64,000 nucleotides of DNA from positions 66,281-130,280 of the forward strand of contig DPXQ01000087.1 in NCBI GenBank assembly GCA_003527225.1, in the 5' to 3' direction. Under the pieces are notes generated by a model. That model did not search any database. It was not told the origin of the DNA and saw only the letters and a program-made list of their open reading frames with translations. The stretch comes from Rhizobium sp. GTDB lineage: Bacteria > Pseudomonadota > Alphaproteobacteria > Rhizobiales > Rhizobiaceae. This document shows, one piece after another, positions 21,029 to 40,189 of this stretch; the stretch's first letter is position 1, and every line of letters starts with the position of its first letter. The translations under genes were made by a program, and so were the position numbers.

Positions 21029-21336
21029 CGGAACTTTTCACACCCTACATGGTCATGCTGATCTTTGCCGGAGCCGTCGCGACCTACCTGACGCGGATCG
21101 GCGGCTATCTGTTGATTGCCCGGCTCAAGTCCGTGCCGCCACGACTCGATGCCGCGTTGAACGCGGTCCCCGCTGCCGTGCTGACGACGCTCGTCGCCCC
21201 CGCCTTCTTTTCCGGCGGGAACGACGTCAAGGTAGCGATGGCTGTCGCCCTTCTTGTCGGCATCCGGTTCTCGGCAATCCCACTGCTGATTTCCGGCTGG
21301 GTCGCAGTGATGGCGATGCGCTACCTTATCGGCTGA
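21025..21336 (+). CDS. azlD: AzlD-family exporter small subunit
   Basis: A 103-residue protein with three or four membrane segments, partner of AzlC. YLTRIGGYLL near residue 20 and ALNAVPAAVLTTLVAP in the middle are the usual AzlD motifs. The ATG at 21025 overlaps the azlC stop by 4 bases (ATGA). Its own end overlaps the convergent aminopeptidase gene by 11 bp, so the transcripts are antisense to each other at their 3' ends. Confidence 0.9.
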   Translation: MTELFTPYMVMLIFAGAVATYLTRIGGYLLIARLKSVPPRLDAALNAVPAAVLTTLVAPAFFSGGNDVKVAMAVALLVGIRFSAIPLLISGWVAVMAMRYLIG

Positions 21337-23161
21337 GCGGTTCGGTCACCCGCTCCAGCCAGGCGCGGGTCGCCTCGTCGTGGACGAGCGGCATCAATTC
21401 CTCGCGCGTGCGGGCATGATAGTCGTCCAGCCATTGCAGTTCCTCGGGCGTCAACAGGTCGGTCACGACGAGATACTTGTCGATCGGAACATATGTCAGC
21501 GTCCCGAAGCTGAGCATCGGCATATCCCCGCCCTCGATAGGTTCCGCCTCGCGCACATAGACGAGGTTTTCAATGCGGATACCGAACGAGCCCGGGCGGT
21601 AATAGCCCGGCTCGTTTGAAAGGATCATTCCGGGAAGTAGCTCCTGCGTCGAAAGACGCGCAATGCGCTGCGGGCCTTCGTGCACGGAAAGGTACGAGCC
21701 AACCCCGTGTCCGGTCCCATGGGCGAAGTCCGCACCCGCCTTCCAGAGCGCTATGCGAGCAAGCGGATCGAGATCGCAGCCCCGCGTTCCCTTGGGAAAC
21801 CGTGCGGTGCTGATCGCAATCATTCCCTTGAGAACAAGAGTGAAAAAGCGCTTTTGTTCCTCGGATACAGGGCCGATCGCGATCGTGCGCGTGATATCCG
21901 TCGTTCCATTGACGTATTGCGCACCTGAATCGATCAGGAACAATTCACCTGAACGGATTGGTCGGTCGGTTTCGGTCGTCACGCGGTAATGCATGATCGC
22001 CGCATGCTCACCGGTGCCGGAAATGGTGTCGAAGGAAATGTCCTTCAACGGGTTCTGCATTCGCTCTCCAACGCGCCGACGAGCGTCCTCGAGCGCCCTG
22101 GCCGCCCCGATTTCGGTAACTGTGCCCGGATGCTGCTGATCGAGCCAGGAGAGGAATTCCACGACTGCGACCCCGTCTTGAACATGCGCCGCGGCCGAGC
22201 CGTTGAGCTCGACCGTATTCTTGGTCGCACGTGCAATCTTCGCCGGATCGCTGCCCTCGACCACGGTGCCGCCATGCGTGCGAACGAGCTCGACAAGAGC
22301 AAAGGGCGTGAGGTCAGGATCGACCAGGATACCGCCACCGCGTGCGGCAAGTGCCTCGAGCCGGCCCGTAAGATCAGCGGGATCGACCTGTTCGGCGAGT
22401 TGACCGAGATAGGCTTCCGCTTCGATACCAGTCTTGCGCTTGTCGAGGAAAATCTCCGCCTTTCCGTCAGCATGAAGGATGGCGCGCGCGAGAGGATGCG
22501 GCGTATGCGGTACGTCGCTTCCCCGGATATTGAAGATCCAGGCAACCGAGGAAGGATCCGTTATCAGCGCGGCAGCCAGTTCACGGTCACGGAGATCCTG
22601 AGCAATTTTTGCGATCTTGTCTTTGGCCAGAACACCGGCATAGGCCTCCGTCTGGATGGAAACAGCGCCGAGCGGCTCCGCCGGGCGAGCCGACCACAGC
22701 GCATCAAGCGGGTTCTGCGCCAGCATCACCAGCGCACCACCCTTTTCGGCGAGCGCCTTTTCCAATCGCCGCACTTCCGCGCCGGTATGAAGCCACGGAT
22801 CGATGCCGAGGCGGAAACCCTTGTGGGCATGGCCCGAAATCCATATGTGGGGCGGCTCTCCGACGAGATCGCCACCGGTAAAGACGGCCGGGTCCACCTG
22901 TTCGGCAAGTTGCGTCACATAGCGGCCATCCACGAAGACGATCGCCTGTCCCCTCATCACAAGTGCCTGTCCCGCCGACCCGGTAAAACCCGTCAGCCAC
23001 GAAAGCCGCTCTGCGCAAGCCGGGACATATTCGCCCTGATACTCGTCAGCCCGCGGAACAAGGAAGCCGTCGATGCCGAGATCGGCAAAACGCGCCCGAA
23101 GCGCTTCGACCCGTTCACGGCCAAACTGGGGAGTGGATGTGACATCGAATGACTGAAACAT
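21326..23161 (-). CDS. pepP: aminopeptidase P (Xaa-Pro aminopeptidase)
   Basis: A 611-residue, three-domain M24 metallopeptidase that removes an N-terminal residue preceding proline. Two creatinase-like domains come first, then the pita-bread catalytic domain. The metal ligands are visible in LIDSGAQYVNGTTDITRT (two Asp, near residue 410), GTGHGVGSYLSVHEGP (His, near 483), SNEPGYYRPG (Glu, near 514) and a second Glu close to GIRIENLVY. The length fits the long eukaryote-like APP1 type rather than the 440-residue E. coli PepP. No signal peptide is present, so it acts in the cytoplasm. It is a single gene, divergent from the small gene at 23450. Confidence 0.92.
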   Translation of the reverse strand: MFQSFDVTSTPQFGRERVEALRARFADLGIDGFLVPRADEYQGEYVPACAERLSWLTGFTGSAGQALVMRGQAIVFVDGRYVTQLAEQVDPAVFTGGDLVGEPPHIWISGHAHKGFRLGIDPWLHTGAEVRRLEKALAEKGGALVMLAQNPLDALWSARPAEPLGAVSIQTEAYAGVLAKDKIAKIAQDLRDRELAAALITDPSSVAWIFNIRGSDVPHTPHPLARAILHADGKAEIFLDKRKTGIEAEAYLGQLAEQVDPADLTGRLEALAARGGGILVDPDLTPFALVELVRTHGGTVVEGSDPAKIARATKNTVELNGSAAAHVQDGVAVVEFLSWLDQQHPGTVTEIGAARALEDARRRVGERMQNPLKDISFDTISGTGEHAAIMHYRVTTETDRPIRSGELFLIDSGAQYVNGTTDITRTIAIGPVSEEQKRFFTLVLKGMIAISTARFPKGTRGCDLDPLARIALWKAGADFAHGTGHGVGSYLSVHEGPQRIARLSTQELLPGMILSNEPGYYRPGSFGIRIENLVYVREAEPIEGGDMPMLSFGTLTYVPIDKYLVVTDLLTPEELQWLDDYHARTREELMPLVHDEATRAWLERVTEPLSR

Positions 23162-23449
23162 GGCGGACTCGCTGTGAGTGAAAATACCATCGCCTTATAG
23201 CAAGGCTACCTTCGGGTGCACCATGGTATCTATGTTTCCCCACACACCAACGGCAGCGCACACCCGGCGTTGGCTGACCTGCCTCCTTTTTAGTCAGATG
23301 GCGTCGAAATTCGCCTGTTCAATAACAGAGCAATGCGATGAACGCATAACACCCATGATGGAAAGCCATCTGCTGAAAGCGCGCAGGAGTCTCTATATTC
23401 AGATTCATCGAACGGGCGACGAACCGCCCGGAACGAAAGGAATATGAAA

Positions 23450-23623
23450 ATGGCAAACTCCTTCTTCCGCAACGCGTACCACCGCGTGATCGAAGCGCGC
23501 GAGCGTCAGGCCAGCCGTTATGTCAACAACGCGCTTCTGTCGCTCGACGACGAAACGCTGAAGTCCATGGGCACCAGCCGCGAAGAAATCCGCCGCAAGG
23601 GCGCAAACAGCTTCGCACTGTGA
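23450..23623 (+). CDS. small DUF1127-like protein
   Basis: A 57-residue basic protein starting MANSFFRNAYHRVIEARE and containing LLSLDDETLKSMGTSREEI. The part with an LD..L...G.sR.EI pattern resembles the DUF1127/YjiS family of tiny arginine-rich proteins. Family members in alphaproteobacteria (for example CcaF1 of Rhodobacter) bind RNA and are co-transcribed with small RNAs. The start is the second of two close ATGs: AGGAA at 23438-23442 is 7 bases from 23450 but only 1 from 23444. A candidate small RNA and a strong terminator follow within 145 bp. The gene is clearly plausible; the family assignment is tentative. Confidence 0.65.
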   Translation: MANSFFRNAYHRVIEARERQASRYVNNALLSLDDETLKSMGTSREEIRRKGANSFAL

Positions 23624-23631
23624 GCTTCTGG

Positions 23632-23766
23632 GCCGTGGTGGAGACCCCTACTCCCTTATCTACACGGCTTTAGGCAATGAAATACGCATGAGTGTTCTCC
23701 TCCCAAGGCTCACGCGATCGATCAGGTGAACTGATCGGCAAGGCGGCATCCTCGATGCCGCCTTTT
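23632..23766 (+). ncRNA. candidate anti-Shine-Dalgarno small RNA (cuckoo/alpha-r14-like)
   Basis: Downstream of the DUF1127-like stop come, in order: a GCCGTG/CACGGC stem (23632-23637 with 23663-23668), an unpaired TCTCCTCCC stretch (23696-23704), a perfect 7-bp hairpin (CGATCAG, loop, CTGATCG, 23719-23737), and a strong terminator hairpin with a T-run (23742-23766). A UC-rich anti-ribosome-binding motif before Rho-independent termination is typical of the CCUCCUCCC-type small RNAs of alphaproteobacteria. No separate promoter is evident, so it may be processed from the mRNA of the small gene upstream. The 5' end is uncertain. Confidence 0.5.
23742..23766 (+). terminator. Rho-independent terminator
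   Basis: GGCGGCAT (23742-23749) pairs with ATGCCGCC (23755-23762) around a 5-base loop and is followed directly by TTTT. It ends the transcript of the small gene and candidate small RNA. Confidence 0.85.
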
Positions 23767-23867: not shown

Positions 23868-24746
23868 TCAGCCACGGCGAAGATGGATCGTTACCCAGCC
23901 GTTGCGCCAGATGGTCCGGACATGTTTCAGCCCGGCTGCGTTGTAGGCGGCGATCACCTTCCAGCGCTGTGCGGCGAGAATTCCCGAAAGGATCACCGAG
24001 CCGCCGCCCGCAAGGTTGGCAACAAGCTGCGGCGCCATTTTCATCAGTGGCCGCGCGAGGATATTGGCGACGATTAGATCGAAGGGTCCATATTCGCGAA
24101 AGGCGGTCGAGTGGAAGCCCCGCGCGACGCGAAAGTCGATGCCCTGGATGATACCGTTCCGACGCGCGTTTTCGCGCGCCACCTTGACCGCGATCGGATC
24201 GATGTCGGTCGCCAGCACCGGCACAGGAAGAAGCTTGCGGATGGCAATGGCGAGCACACCGCTCCCCGTTCCAAGATCGAGCGCATTGGCGACCGGTCGC
24301 GCGCGCGTCACCTCGGCGATCATCTCCAGACAGCCGGCCGTTGTGCCGTGATGCCCCGTGCCGAAGGCCTGTCCTGCGTCGATCTCGATCGCGACGTCAT
24401 TGACGTGCACCTTGTCGCGATCATGGGAGCCATGCACCAGGAAACGTCCGGCCCGAACCGGCTTCAACCCTTCGAGAGACTTGGCGATCCAGTCGATATC
24501 CGGGATAACCTCCCTCTCGATCACTATGCCGGCGAAACTCTCATCGAGCATAGCGCGCAGCCGTTCGTGGATCGCCTCCTCGTCTTCGGCCATGAGATAG
24601 ATCGAGGCCTCCCAGACATCGTTCTTTTCGTCGACCTCGGTCGTGGCGATCGCGAAGTCCTCTTCGCCGAAAACGACGGTCATCAGATCGAGGATCTCGG
24701 CGGCCTGCTTTTCGCTGGTCGTCACGTAAAGGCGGATTTCACTCAC
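23868..24746 (-). CDS. prmA: ribosomal protein L11 methyltransferase
   Basis: A 292-residue SAM-dependent methyltransferase that trimethylates ribosomal protein L11. The N-terminal part (SEIRLYVTTSEKQAAEILDL) matches alphaproteobacterial PrmA. The catalytic domain has FGTGHHGTTAGCLE, LDLGTGSGVLAIA (SAM-binding) and LIVANILARPL, the PrmA form of motif IV. I start it at the GTG at 24746: AGGAAAG lies 7 bases upstream, inside what would otherwise be coding sequence from the ATG at 24779. It lies downstream of the SCO1 gene on the same strand, 124 bp away. Confidence 0.95.
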   Translation of the reverse strand: MSEIRLYVTTSEKQAAEILDLMTVVFGEEDFAIATTEVDEKNDVWEASIYLMAEDEEAIHERLRAMLDESFAGIVIEREVIPDIDWIAKSLEGLKPVRAGRFLVHGSHDRDKVHVNDVAIEIDAGQAFGTGHHGTTAGCLEMIAEVTRARPVANALDLGTGSGVLAIAIRKLLPVPVLATDIDPIAVKVARENARRNGIIQGIDFRVARGFHSTAFREYGPFDLIVANILARPLMKMAPQLVANLAGGGSVILSGILAAQRWKVIAAYNAAGLKHVRTIWRNGWVTIHLRRG

Positions 24747-24870
24747 GGTCGCTCTTTCCTGCTGAAAAAGGCGGGGCAAGAGGCCGGCGGCGCCCTACCC
24801 TGCGGTCAAGCCTCCGGTACAACGCCGGGCGGCATCTGGCAACACGCGGCGGCGACGTGCGGGTGGACAA

Positions 24871-35653: not shown

Positions 35654-37843
<2,190 letters not shown>

Positions 37844-38740: not shown

Positions 38741-40189
38741 TCAAAGATAGGGCGATCCGAGCCAAAGGACACGGTCGAAGAACCGTAAAATGAACGGCCG
38801 GCTGCGCAGTTCTTCCAGCCGGACTTCCTCGGCGCCGTCGAGCGCGTCGGCGATGCGTGCATCGACCCGTTGAGCAAATTCACGGTCGTAGACTTCGATG
38901 TCCACCTCGAAGTTAAGTCTCAGCGATCGCGAATCAAGATTGGACGAACCGACAAATGCCCATTGGCCATCGACGGTCATCAGCTTCGAATGGTCGAAGG
39001 GACCCTTCGCCCGCAAGATGCGACAGCCGTCCTTCAGGATCTGGTCGAACTGCGCCGTCATGGCACGGCTGACGATCGCCAGATTGTTCTGCGAGGGAAC
39101 GATGATGTCGACCGCGACACCACGCCTTGCGGCGGTCGCAAGCGCGCCGACAAAGACGTTATCGGGAAGAAAATAGGGCGACATGATCCGGATCGAGCGC
39201 TCCGCGACCGAAAATGCCCCCATGATGATCTTGTGATTGGTTTCGATGTTGGTATCGGGGCCCGAGACGACGGTGCGGACGAATGACGGTCCCCCTTGGA
39301 CCGCTCCCTCGACCGAGATCTCCCAGGTGTCATCTTTCAGGACCTCCCCTGTCTCGAAATACCAGTCCTCTGCGGCAACGGCGAAAATGTCGGCGACGGC
39401 CGGTCCTGCGATGCGGAAATGGGTGTCGCGGGCGCCGTCCTTTCCGGTGAAACCCAGACGGATATTCATTCCACCCATAAAGGCGATGGCGCCATCAACG
39501 ACGATGATCTTCCGGTGAGTGCGGAGATTGGCGTATGGAAGCCGCAGACCCAGGATAACCTTGCCGTTGAAAGCGGCAACAGAAACGCCCCCGTCCCTCA
39601 GATAGCCGAGTATGCTCGGGGCGCTGTAACGAGCACCGACCGCATCGACCAGAACCCGGACCGCCACCCCCCGCTTGTGAGCCGCGATCAGGCTATCGGC
39701 GATACGCAGGCCGGCAGGGTCGCGGTCGAATATGTAGGTTTCCAGAATAATGCTGCGCCGGGCGCCATCGATCGCCGCAGCCATGGCGTCATAGGCTTCG
39801 TCGCCCGATGCAAGCAGTCCGAGCGTATTGCCCGAAGAAAGCATATGCCCGGTGACACGATCACCCAGCATCTTCATCGCCGCCATGCGCCGACCGAATT
39901 GGCGTTCGATCTCCTCCCCCGGCACCTCGAATTGGGAAAGCACCCGCCAGAGCGCCTCCTGCCGAAATGCGCGCCGCGAAAGAATCGAGGCACGGCGTAT
40001 CCGATTTATCCCAGCCACTGCATAGATGAGCGCACCGACAATCGGCGACAGGATGATGACACTCACCCAGCCGATTGCGGAACGGACTTCCTGCTTCGTC
40101 ATTGCTGCATGAACGGCCGCGACCGTGCCCATCGCAATCGAGAGCACGGCGAGGATTTGCGGCCAGTAGGTTTGCAGCGCTTCGAACAT
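38741..40189 (-). CDS. cls: cardiolipin synthase (phospholipase D type)
   Basis: A 482-residue membrane enzyme that makes cardiolipin from two phosphatidylglycerols (or a related transfer). The first 60 residues form membrane helices, as in ClsA. The two HKD catalytic motifs are HRKIIVVDGAIAFMGG (near 229) and HSKLMTVDGQWAFVGSSN (near 399). The nominal first codon at 40192 is TTG and is followed by ATG at 40189, which I take as the start. It is the first gene of a pair with the EEP gene. Confidence 0.93.
   Translation of the reverse strand: MFEALQTYWPQILAVLSIAMGTVAAVHAAMTKQEVRSAIGWVSVIILSPIVGALIYAVAGINRIRRASILSRRAFRQEALWRVLSQFEVPGEEIERQFGRRMAAMKMLGDRVTGHMLSSGNTLGLLASGDEAYDAMAAAIDGARRSIILETYIFDRDPAGLRIADSLIAAHKRGVAVRVLVDAVGARYSAPSILGYLRDGGVSVAAFNGKVILGLRLPYANLRTHRKIIVVDGAIAFMGGMNIRLGFTGKDGARDTHFRIAGPAVADIFAVAAEDWYFETGEVLKDDTWEISVEGAVQGGPSFVRTVVSGPDTNIETNHKIIMGAFSVAERSIRIMSPYFLPDNVFVGALATAARRGVAVDIIVPSQNNLAIVSRAMTAQFDQILKDGCRILRAKGPFDHSKLMTVDGQWAFVGSSNLDSRSLRLNFEVDIEVYDREFAQRVDARIADALDGAEEVRLEELRSRPFILRFFDRVLWLGSPYL

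What the first reader, a model, noticed from the sequence alone, without database searches (positions are those of the whole stretch)
23450..23766. DUF1127-like small gene followed by an anti-Shine-Dalgarno small RNA candidate
A 57-residue DUF1127-like gene is followed, within 145 bp, by a stem, an unpaired TCTCCTCCC stretch, a 7-bp hairpin and a strong terminator. In Rhodobacter the DUF1127 protein CcaF1 is co-transcribed with the CcsR small RNAs, which carry CCUCCUCCC motifs (cuckoo RNAs), and the rhizobial alpha-r14 RNAs carry the same kind of motif. This locus could be a rhizobial version of that protein-RNA pair. The motifs are seen directly; the family link and function are inference.
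Basis: partly seen in the sequence, partly recalled or inferred. Interest (0 to 1): 0.7.

Follow-up and report, generated by a model that had tools for sequence, protein, structure and literature searches.

The report
Small protein gene with anti-ribosome-site RNA
In this rhizobial relative, a tiny-protein gene is followed by a conserved RNA hairpin whose loop could mask ribosome-binding sites on other messages; in some related bacteria the promoter and the RNA remain although the protein is gone.

Summary
In detail: a 57-codon gene (23450-23623), hairpin 1, hairpin 2 with CTCCTCCC (23697-23704) in its loop, a 6-bp hairpin, a terminator. CTCCTCCC alone is at chance level here; conservation makes it real. 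56 of 80 relatives have the motif in a hairpin loop after the gene, 2.9 in shuffles, and stems covary, also in 27 sequences outside the model. The protein misses Pfam DUF1127 but profiles support remote kinship. The RNA scores 25.4 bits against Rfam ar14's 58.8: same design, not a member. Upstream, 66 of 66 Rhizobiaceae-type loci have a LysR-type box, 0.65 expected. It has the core of the published LsrB site of nfeR1 but lacks the TG of the VtlR/LsrB consensus, so the activator is open. 18 of 30 loci fetched with the RNA model lack the protein; a PrmA tree fits one RNA gain, two RNA losses and several protein losses. So this is a cuckoo-like protein-plus-RNA locus with separable halves. Transcript, activator and targets are untested.

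The parts
23334..23347 (+). TGCR-N6-GCAT box (TGCGATGAACGCAT), candidate site of a LysR-type activator
   Evidence: core of the published nfeR1 LsrB site TGCA-N6-GCAT (PMC10746234, passages), but without the TG of GCAT-N3-TG-N3-T
23393..23398 (+). -10 element CTATAT; the -35 (about 23370-23375) is a poor match; predicted start near 23405
   Evidence: start site inferred, not measured
23413..23430 (+). 5' leader hairpin CGGGCG...CGCCCG just before the ribosome-binding site
   Evidence: similar inverted repeats seen by eye in many of the relatives; not counted
23450..23623 (+). 57-aa DUF1127-like small protein gene
23631..23669 (+). hairpin 1 of the RNA; loop motif reads ACTCCC here (23650-23655), CTCCTCC/TCCTCCC at this place in 41 of 80 relatives
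   Evidence: not predicted by RNAalifold on the alignment
23670..23684 (+). linker, GAATACG-like in many relatives
23685..23716 (+). hairpin 2 with the anti-Shine-Dalgarno loop
23697..23704 (+). CTCCTCCC anti-Shine-Dalgarno motif
23720..23736 (+). hairpin 3, GATCAG/CTGATC
23740..23766 (+). intrinsic terminator, AAGGCGGCAT/ATGCCGCCTT plus T run; symmetric, so it may also serve the convergent prmA
23868..24779 (-). prmA (ribosomal protein L11 methyltransferase), conserved convergent neighbour
21326..23161 (-). M24 aminopeptidase P-like gene (pepP), conserved divergent neighbour

Best explanation
One transcript, started at a promoter with a LysR-type activator box near 23405 and ended by the terminator at 23766, carries a 57-aa DUF1127-like protein and, in its 3' part, an anti-Shine-Dalgarno RNA of the cuckoo type. 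The RNA (roughly 23630-23766, freed by RNase cleavage or acting as part of the message) uses the CUCCUCCC loop to pair with ribosome-binding sites of other mRNAs and lower their translation, as shown for NfeR1 and AbcR. The RNA was added once to an older protein gene and does not need the protein: the coding part was later lost several times while box and RNA stayed. Shown: gene, conserved hairpins and box, synteny, separate presence of the two halves. Inferred: transcription as one unit, activator (LsrB/VtlR or another LysR-type regulator), processing, targets, role of the protein, order of gains and losses.
For: Hairpin with aSD loop in 56 of 80 loci vs 2.9 in shuffles; 45 two-sided changes vs 11.8 shuffled, and 49 vs 10.9 in 27 sequences outside the model; R1 over 50 bits in 57 of 80 loci, 32 of them used to build it. 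TGC-N7-GCA box in 66 of 66 Rhizobiaceae-type loci, 0.65 expected; 1 of 14 loci of the outer clade. A similar TATAT...CATCGAA start region is seen at several ar14 and small-DUF1127 promoters. prmA found in 107 of 111 and pepP in 108 of 111 loci. 18 of 30 fetched RNA loci lack the protein; their box-to-RNA distance is 162-225 nt in the 15 of 18 where one search's pattern found the box, against 324-344 nt in 10 of the 12 loci with protein (one 399, one not found), a difference near the coding length.
Against: No expression data. The box lacks the TG of the VtlR/LsrB consensus GCAT-N3-TG-N3-T: 0 of 67 boxes have it forward and 2 reversed, while 12 of 21 ar14 boxes and 7 of 7 DUF1127 boxes do; CAC stands there instead in 52 of 67. 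TGCR-N6-GCAT also occurs 16 times in the window, 7.6 expected. The -35 is poor. The window's first loop motif is decayed. The number of pair types is not above shuffles (90 of 500 as high), and RNAalifold found only hairpin 2's lower stem and the terminator. 6 loci keep the protein and lost the RNA. RNA-only and protein-only loci come from different queries; tree support is SH-aLRT only, many forks open.
Confidence: 0.66

Rival explanations
1. CcaF1-type obligate pair: the protein binds and matures its own RNA, so the two are one unit.
For: Same layout as ccaF1-CcsR, where CcaF1 and RNase E are reported to mature the RNAs (PMC10253847, PMC8625941 passages); remote DUF1127 kinship; 8 of 57 residues Arg.
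Against: 18 of 30 fetched RNA loci have no matching protein and 6 loci of the RNA-bearing clade keep the protein only. Other DUF1127 proteins could act in trans, so the reading is weakened, not excluded.
Confidence: 0.2
2. The hairpins act only in cis: an mRNA-stabilising or translation-controlling 3' region of the small gene, no trans-acting RNA.
For: RNA and gene appear to share promoter and terminator in the window; aSD motifs could in principle pair with the own ribosome-binding site.
Against: The RNA is kept, mostly with the box, where the gene is gone. The own ribosome-binding site (AAAGGA-like, by eye) is a poor partner for CUCCUCCC.
Confidence: 0.08
3. Ordinary small mRNA with a terminator; the C-rich loop is incidental.
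For: CTCCTCCC alone is at chance level in the window; the window's first motif is decayed.
Against: 56 of 80 vs 2.9; covariation in sequences outside the model; protein-less loci keep the RNA.
Confidence: 0.04
4. The RNA is made from its own promoter inside or after the gene rather than by processing of the mRNA.
For: The GAATACG-like linker has no assigned role; protein-less loci show an RNA gene with a promoter box of its own.
Against: In protein-bearing loci the conserved box and -10 lie before the gene; I did not search systematically for a second promoter.
Confidence: 0.12

Closest known systems
ccaF1-CcsR1-4 of Rhodobacter sphaeroides (CIN1 locus)
   Same: small DUF1127-type gene followed by small RNAs and a terminator on one transcript (PMC10253847, PMC8625941 passages); the aSD motifs of these RNAs are recalled, and PMC3927594 passages give RS0680a two stem loops each with an aSD motif
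   Different: 71-aa protein carrying a DUF1127 domain, four RNAs, RpoHI/RpoHII promoter; here 57 aa outside Pfam DUF1127, one two-hairpin RNA, a LysR-type box, and the parts are separable
ar14 / NfeR1 (Rfam RF02344)
   Same: aSD motifs in hairpin loops, terminator, TGC-N7-GCA box at similar spacing and a similar start region
   Different: ar14 has three aSD hairpins and has copies in all 12 relatives' genomes searched; this RNA scores 25.4 bits (window) and at most 31.1 among 20 loci against ar14, and 30 ar14 loci score at most 21.4 bits against R1; the boxes differ in their second half
cuckoo RNA family (2-4 hairpins each with CCUCCUCCC loop)
   Same: 34 of 80 relatives have the motif at both hairpin places; PMC3927594 passages mention a two-hairpin S. 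meliloti RNA, SmelC201
   Different: window keeps one intact loop; the motif is often CUCCUCC or UCCUCCC, not the full nonamer. The defining paper (PMC4615179) is not held
small DUF1127 genes under VtlR (A. tumefaciens atu1667, Brucella BAB1_0914 and kin)
   Same: tiny protein behind a TGC-N7-GCA box in 7 of 10 such genes of three relatives; some lie near ar14 copies
   Different: the short ones seen here have 47-48 aa and clear PF06568 matches, lie at other places in the genome, and have the full GCAT-N3-TG-N3-T box

Membership tests
DUF1127 (PF06568) | match to the Pfam model over its cut-off (23.3 bits) | tested here: not met
   no match up to E 10; in the genome of L001 none of the 5 PF06568 matches lies at this gene's place, G001:C1:37607-37777
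DUF1127 (PF06568) | homology at profile level | tested here: met
   hhalign probability 84.4, E 7.1e-6 over 26 columns; DUF1127 HMM scores the window protein E 1.4e-5 with no shuffle among the 27 rows shown. In the reverse search only one DUF1127 protein beat the best shuffle
DUF1127 (PF06568) | arginine-rich, about 14% on average | tested here: met
   8 of 57 = 14%; average from PMC12501420 section 32
ar14 (RF02344) | score over the gathering cut-off 58.8 | tested here: not met
   25.4 bits; 0 of 18 relatives; only one match listed among 20 more, 31.1 bits
ar14 (RF02344) | three hairpins each with the aSD motif | tested here: not met
   two conserved hairpin places in the relatives, one intact loop in the window
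cuckoo RNA | 2-4 adjacent hairpins each carrying CCUCCUCCC in the loop (recalled; PMC3927594 passages agree) | tested here: inconclusive
   motif at both hairpin places in 34 of 80 relatives; window: second loop only. The published matcher could not be run
CIN1 / CcaF1-CcsR pair | short DUF1127 gene next to CcsR-like RNA | tested here: met
   layout in the window and in 57 of 80 loci, with the DUF1127 caveat above
CIN1 / CcaF1-CcsR pair | co-transcription, RNase E processing, protein binds RNA | not testable with these tools
   no expression or binding data
LsrB/VtlR regulon | TGCA-N6-GCAT-type core about 60-72 nt before the start site (nfeR1 site, PMC10746234) | tested here: met
   box 5' end 56-60 nt before the -10 where a -10 was recognised; 66 of 66 Rhizobiaceae-type loci loose form, 61 strict TGCR-N6-GCAT
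LsrB/VtlR regulon | consensus GCAT-N3-TG-N3-T (PMC7486931, PMC8844928 passages) | tested here: not met
   0 of 67 forward, 2 of 67 reversed, window none; 12 of 21 ar14 boxes and 7 of 7 DUF1127 boxes have it
LsrB/VtlR regulon | binding and activation by LsrB/VtlR | not testable with these tools
   needs EMSA or mutant

The most novel reading that the evidence does not exclude
A natural series of mRNA-to-sRNA conversions: a LysR-box-driven small-protein gene at the prmA locus gained an anti-Shine-Dalgarno RNA in its 3' region once, and the coding part was then removed several times independently while box and RNA were kept, so that the same locus is a protein gene, a dual protein-RNA gene or a pure sRNA gene in different Rhizobiaceae.
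Probability: 0.55. Interest if true: 0.7.

Novelty: new variant of a known kind. Interest (0 to 1): 0.52.

Why it matters
It joins in one gene two things studied apart in Rhizobiaceae: LysR-type-activated regulators of the AbcR/NfeR1/small-DUF1127 kind, and protein-RNA cuckoo loci. Pfam and Rfam both miss it. Because the two halves are present separately in relatives, the open question of whether DUF1127 proteins serve the RNAs beside them becomes testable by comparing natural protein-plus-RNA and RNA-only strains.

Tried and rejected
Chance C-rich stretch: rejected by 56 of 80 vs 2.9. Known Rfam family: no gathering match in the window or in 18 relatives, and one match of 31.1 bits in 20 more loci; the c-di-GMP-I hit (E 5.2) is noise. 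Direct Pfam/NCBIfam identification of the protein: nothing up to E 10. Structure: AlphaFold gave three helices, pLDDT 73.7, pTM 0.45; Foldseek in PDB found nothing under E 4, so the fold adds nothing. S. meliloti identity of the RNA: SmelC201 is named as a two-hairpin RNA in PMC3927594, but its position was found neither in the main text of PMC2873474 nor by a paper search, so the identity is open. The cuckoo paper and the CcaF1 paper are not held; only passages of papers that cite them were read. No paper describing this prmA-side locus was seen in the listings, or by looking for prmA in PMC3927594, PMC2873474, PMC10117765 and PMC6234868, but the library is partial and the cuckoo family's own lists could already hold it.

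Dropped rows: 4 of 111 loci had no PrmA and are not in the tree. Of 86 relatives in genome contigs the best 80 were returned. Of 46 genomes with an R1 match only the 30 best became loci; the last rows of that table (E over 1e-5) may be chance. In alignments A1, A2 and A4 I used 31 of 77 homologues, 43 loci and 32 loci, each plus the window. A first PrmA extraction gave pieces under 250 residues for 12 loci and was redone. The division into Rhizobiaceae-type (66) and outer loci (14) is mine; the 14 are the outer clade, and two of them (L053, L073) are titled 'Rhizobiaceae bacterium'.

Full report
WHAT IS THERE. On the + strand between a divergent pepP-like gene (21326-23161, -) and a convergent prmA (23868-24779, -) lie, in order: a TGCGATGAACGCAT box (23334-23347), a CTATAT -10 (23393-23398), a leader hairpin (23413-23430), a 57-codon gene (23450-23623), hairpin 1 (23631-23669), hairpin 2 with CTCCTCCC in the loop (23685-23716), hairpin 3 (23720-23736) and an intrinsic terminator (23740-23766). 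The 3' part folds better than all of 200 shuffles, z -3.29.

IS IT MORE THAN CHANCE. In the window alone CTCCTCCC occurs twice, 2.9 expected. The comparative evidence decides. A protein search gave 77 homologues; those with a name are mostly 'hypothetical protein', and none has a precomputed Pfam domain. A genome scan gave 80 loci. In the 160 nt after the stop codon 56 of 80 have CTCCTCC or TCCTCCC, and 56 have it in the loop of a hairpin of at least 6 pairs; shuffles give 5.65 and 2.9 on average. The motif stands 15-45 nt after the stop codon in 41 of 80, 50-98 nt after it in 49 of 80, at both places in 34 of 80. On 44 aligned sequences 94.4% of cells of the three-helix structure pair, with 45 two-sided changes against 11.8 in shuffles; the count of pair types is not above shuffles (90 of 500 as high). 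RNAalifold by itself predicts only the lower stem of hairpin 2 and the terminator; hairpin 1 was not in the counted structure. A covariance model R1 built from 33 sequences finds the window at 69.9 bits (the window was in the model) and 57 of 80 loci over 50 bits, 25 of which were not in the model. In 27 sequences outside the model 99.7% of cells pair and 49 cells have two-sided changes against 10.9, pair types again 90 of 500; that alignment was fitted to the structure, so it leans that way.

THE PROTEIN. The ORF evolves as a protein (dN/dS 0.29). It does not match PF06568. Still, a profile of 32 family members aligns with a profile of 16 DUF1127 proteins, probability 84.4, E 7.1e-6, and the DUF1127 HMM finds the window protein at E 1.4e-5, with no shuffle among the 27 rows printed. 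The reverse search is weaker: one DUF1127 protein beat the best shuffle, three more came just below it. I read it as a divergent DUF1127 relative. It is arginine-rich (8 of 57). The model has three helices at moderate confidence. By the family profile at E 0.001 it is found in 103 of 297 genomes drawn from the order and 125 of 199 from the family; among the weakest matches many cover only about the first 25 residues and may be chance or other genes.

THE PROMOTER. TGC-N7-GCA starts 121-105 nt before the start codon in 66 of 66 Rhizobiaceae-type loci (61 as TGCR-N6-GCAT), 0.65 expected from the rest of the same loci; in 1 of 14 loci of the outer clade. Its 5' end lies 56-60 nt before the -10 where a -10 was recognised. 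The LsrB site of nfeR1 is given as TGCA-N6-GCAT at -72 to -60 (PMC10746234 passages), which fits. The VtlR/LsrB consensus is given as GCAT-N3-TG-N3-T (PMC7486931, PMC8844928 passages), which does not: 0 of 67 boxes of this locus (66 plus the window) have it forward, 2 reversed, while 12 of 21 ar14 boxes and 7 of 7 boxes of PF06568 genes have it; 52 of 67 have CAC in the TG region. So the box is of the same LysR type as that of nfeR1 but has its own second half. Around ar14, 13 of 30 loci have the strict TGCR-N6-GCAT within 150 nt, 8 of them at -66 or -67, and 8 of 30 have a DUF1127 gene nearby by a strict pattern; several ar14 and DUF1127 promoters have a TATAT...CATCGAA start region like the one here. 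LsrB/VtlR or a related LysR-type regulator as the activator is inference.

PROTEIN AND RNA ARE SEPARABLE. R1 finds the RNA in 46 of 199 family genomes. Of the 30 best, which I fetched, 18 have no ORF matching the family profile at E 0.001, 4 match weakly and 8 strongly. RNA-only loci lie at pepP/prmA as a rule (over all 111 loci prmA is found in 107 and pepP in 108). By one search's pattern 15 of 18 keep the box; there the box-to-RNA distance is 162-225 nt, against 324-344 nt in 10 of the 12 loci with protein (one 399 nt, one not found). Three of the weak ones (L173-L175) hold a diverged 57-codon ORF whose differences fall mostly at third positions. On a PrmA tree of 107 loci (67 both, 17 RNA only, 23 protein only) the RNA needs 3 changes and the protein 6; starred branches force at least 4 for the RNA-only label. 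The simplest history is: protein and box first (three protein-only loci just outside the RNA clade, L052, L056, L057, have the box in loose form), RNA gained once, RNA lost twice, protein lost several times. The tree uses SH-aLRT only, many forks are open, several rows are long, and RNA-only and protein-only rows come from different searches.

HOW IT LIKELY WORKS. Anti-Shine-Dalgarno loops of NfeR1 and AbcR1/2 are reported to silence mRNAs of transporters and of ntrBC by pairing at ribosome-binding sites (PMC10746234, PMC8844928 passages). In Rhodobacter the CcsR RNAs are processed from the ccaF1 3' region with RNase E and CcaF1 (PMC8625941, PMC10253847 passages). By analogy I expect an RNA of about 60-140 nt from the 3' part that represses messages in trans when the activator is on; the protein may act on RNA (as CcaF1) or on sensor kinases (as reported for small DUF1127 proteins, PMC12501420 abstract and section 32). 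None of this is tested for this locus.

KNOWN OR NEW. The design is known: cuckoo RNAs and the CIN1 arrangement. This locus fails the ar14 cut-off and the Pfam cut-off and is a separate lineage by covariance model (30 ar14 loci score at most 21.4 bits with R1). PMC3927594 mentions a two-hairpin RNA SmelC201 left out of that study; it could be the S. meliloti form. New here, as far as the searches show, are the prmA-side family, its box and the separate presence of its two halves.

SCORES. Interest 0.52: a solid, conserved dual locus with an instructive history, but of a known design and without expression data. Novelty: new variant of a known kind.

Noticed in passing
window 23740-23766: The terminator is symmetric; R1 matches it also on the minus strand (19.1 bits), so it may end prmA too.
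   Followed up: partly
L134, L137, L138, L141, L143, L147, L148, L150: In 8 of 30 ar14 loci of relatives a Pfam-type DUF1127 gene lies within about 1 kb, before or after the RNA: other protein-RNA neighbours.
   Followed up: partly
window 23334-23353 and relatives: The box of this locus continues with CAC (52 of 67) where ar14 and DUF1127 promoters have the TG of the VtlR/LsrB consensus: perhaps a different LysR-type regulator.
   Followed up: partly
window 23670-23684 and A2 columns 70-90: A GAATACG-like linker between the two hairpins recurs in many loci and has no assigned role (perhaps a cleavage site).
   Followed up: no
window 39911-39918: A second CTCCTCCC on the + strand; not examined.
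   Followed up: no
window 36989-37003 and others: TGCR-N6-GCAT occurs 16 times in the window, 7.6 expected; 36989-37003 matches on both strands like 23333-23347.
   Followed up: no
L173-L175: A diverged 57-codon ORF takes the place of the DUF1127-like protein and differs mostly at third codon positions.
   Followed up: partly
L047: A record titled as an Arenimonas MAG holds this Rhizobiaceae-type locus, probably a mis-binned contig.
   Followed up: no
L018, L023, L025, L028, L040, L042: Six loci inside the RNA-bearing clade keep gene and box (loose form) but have no R1 match.
   Followed up: partly
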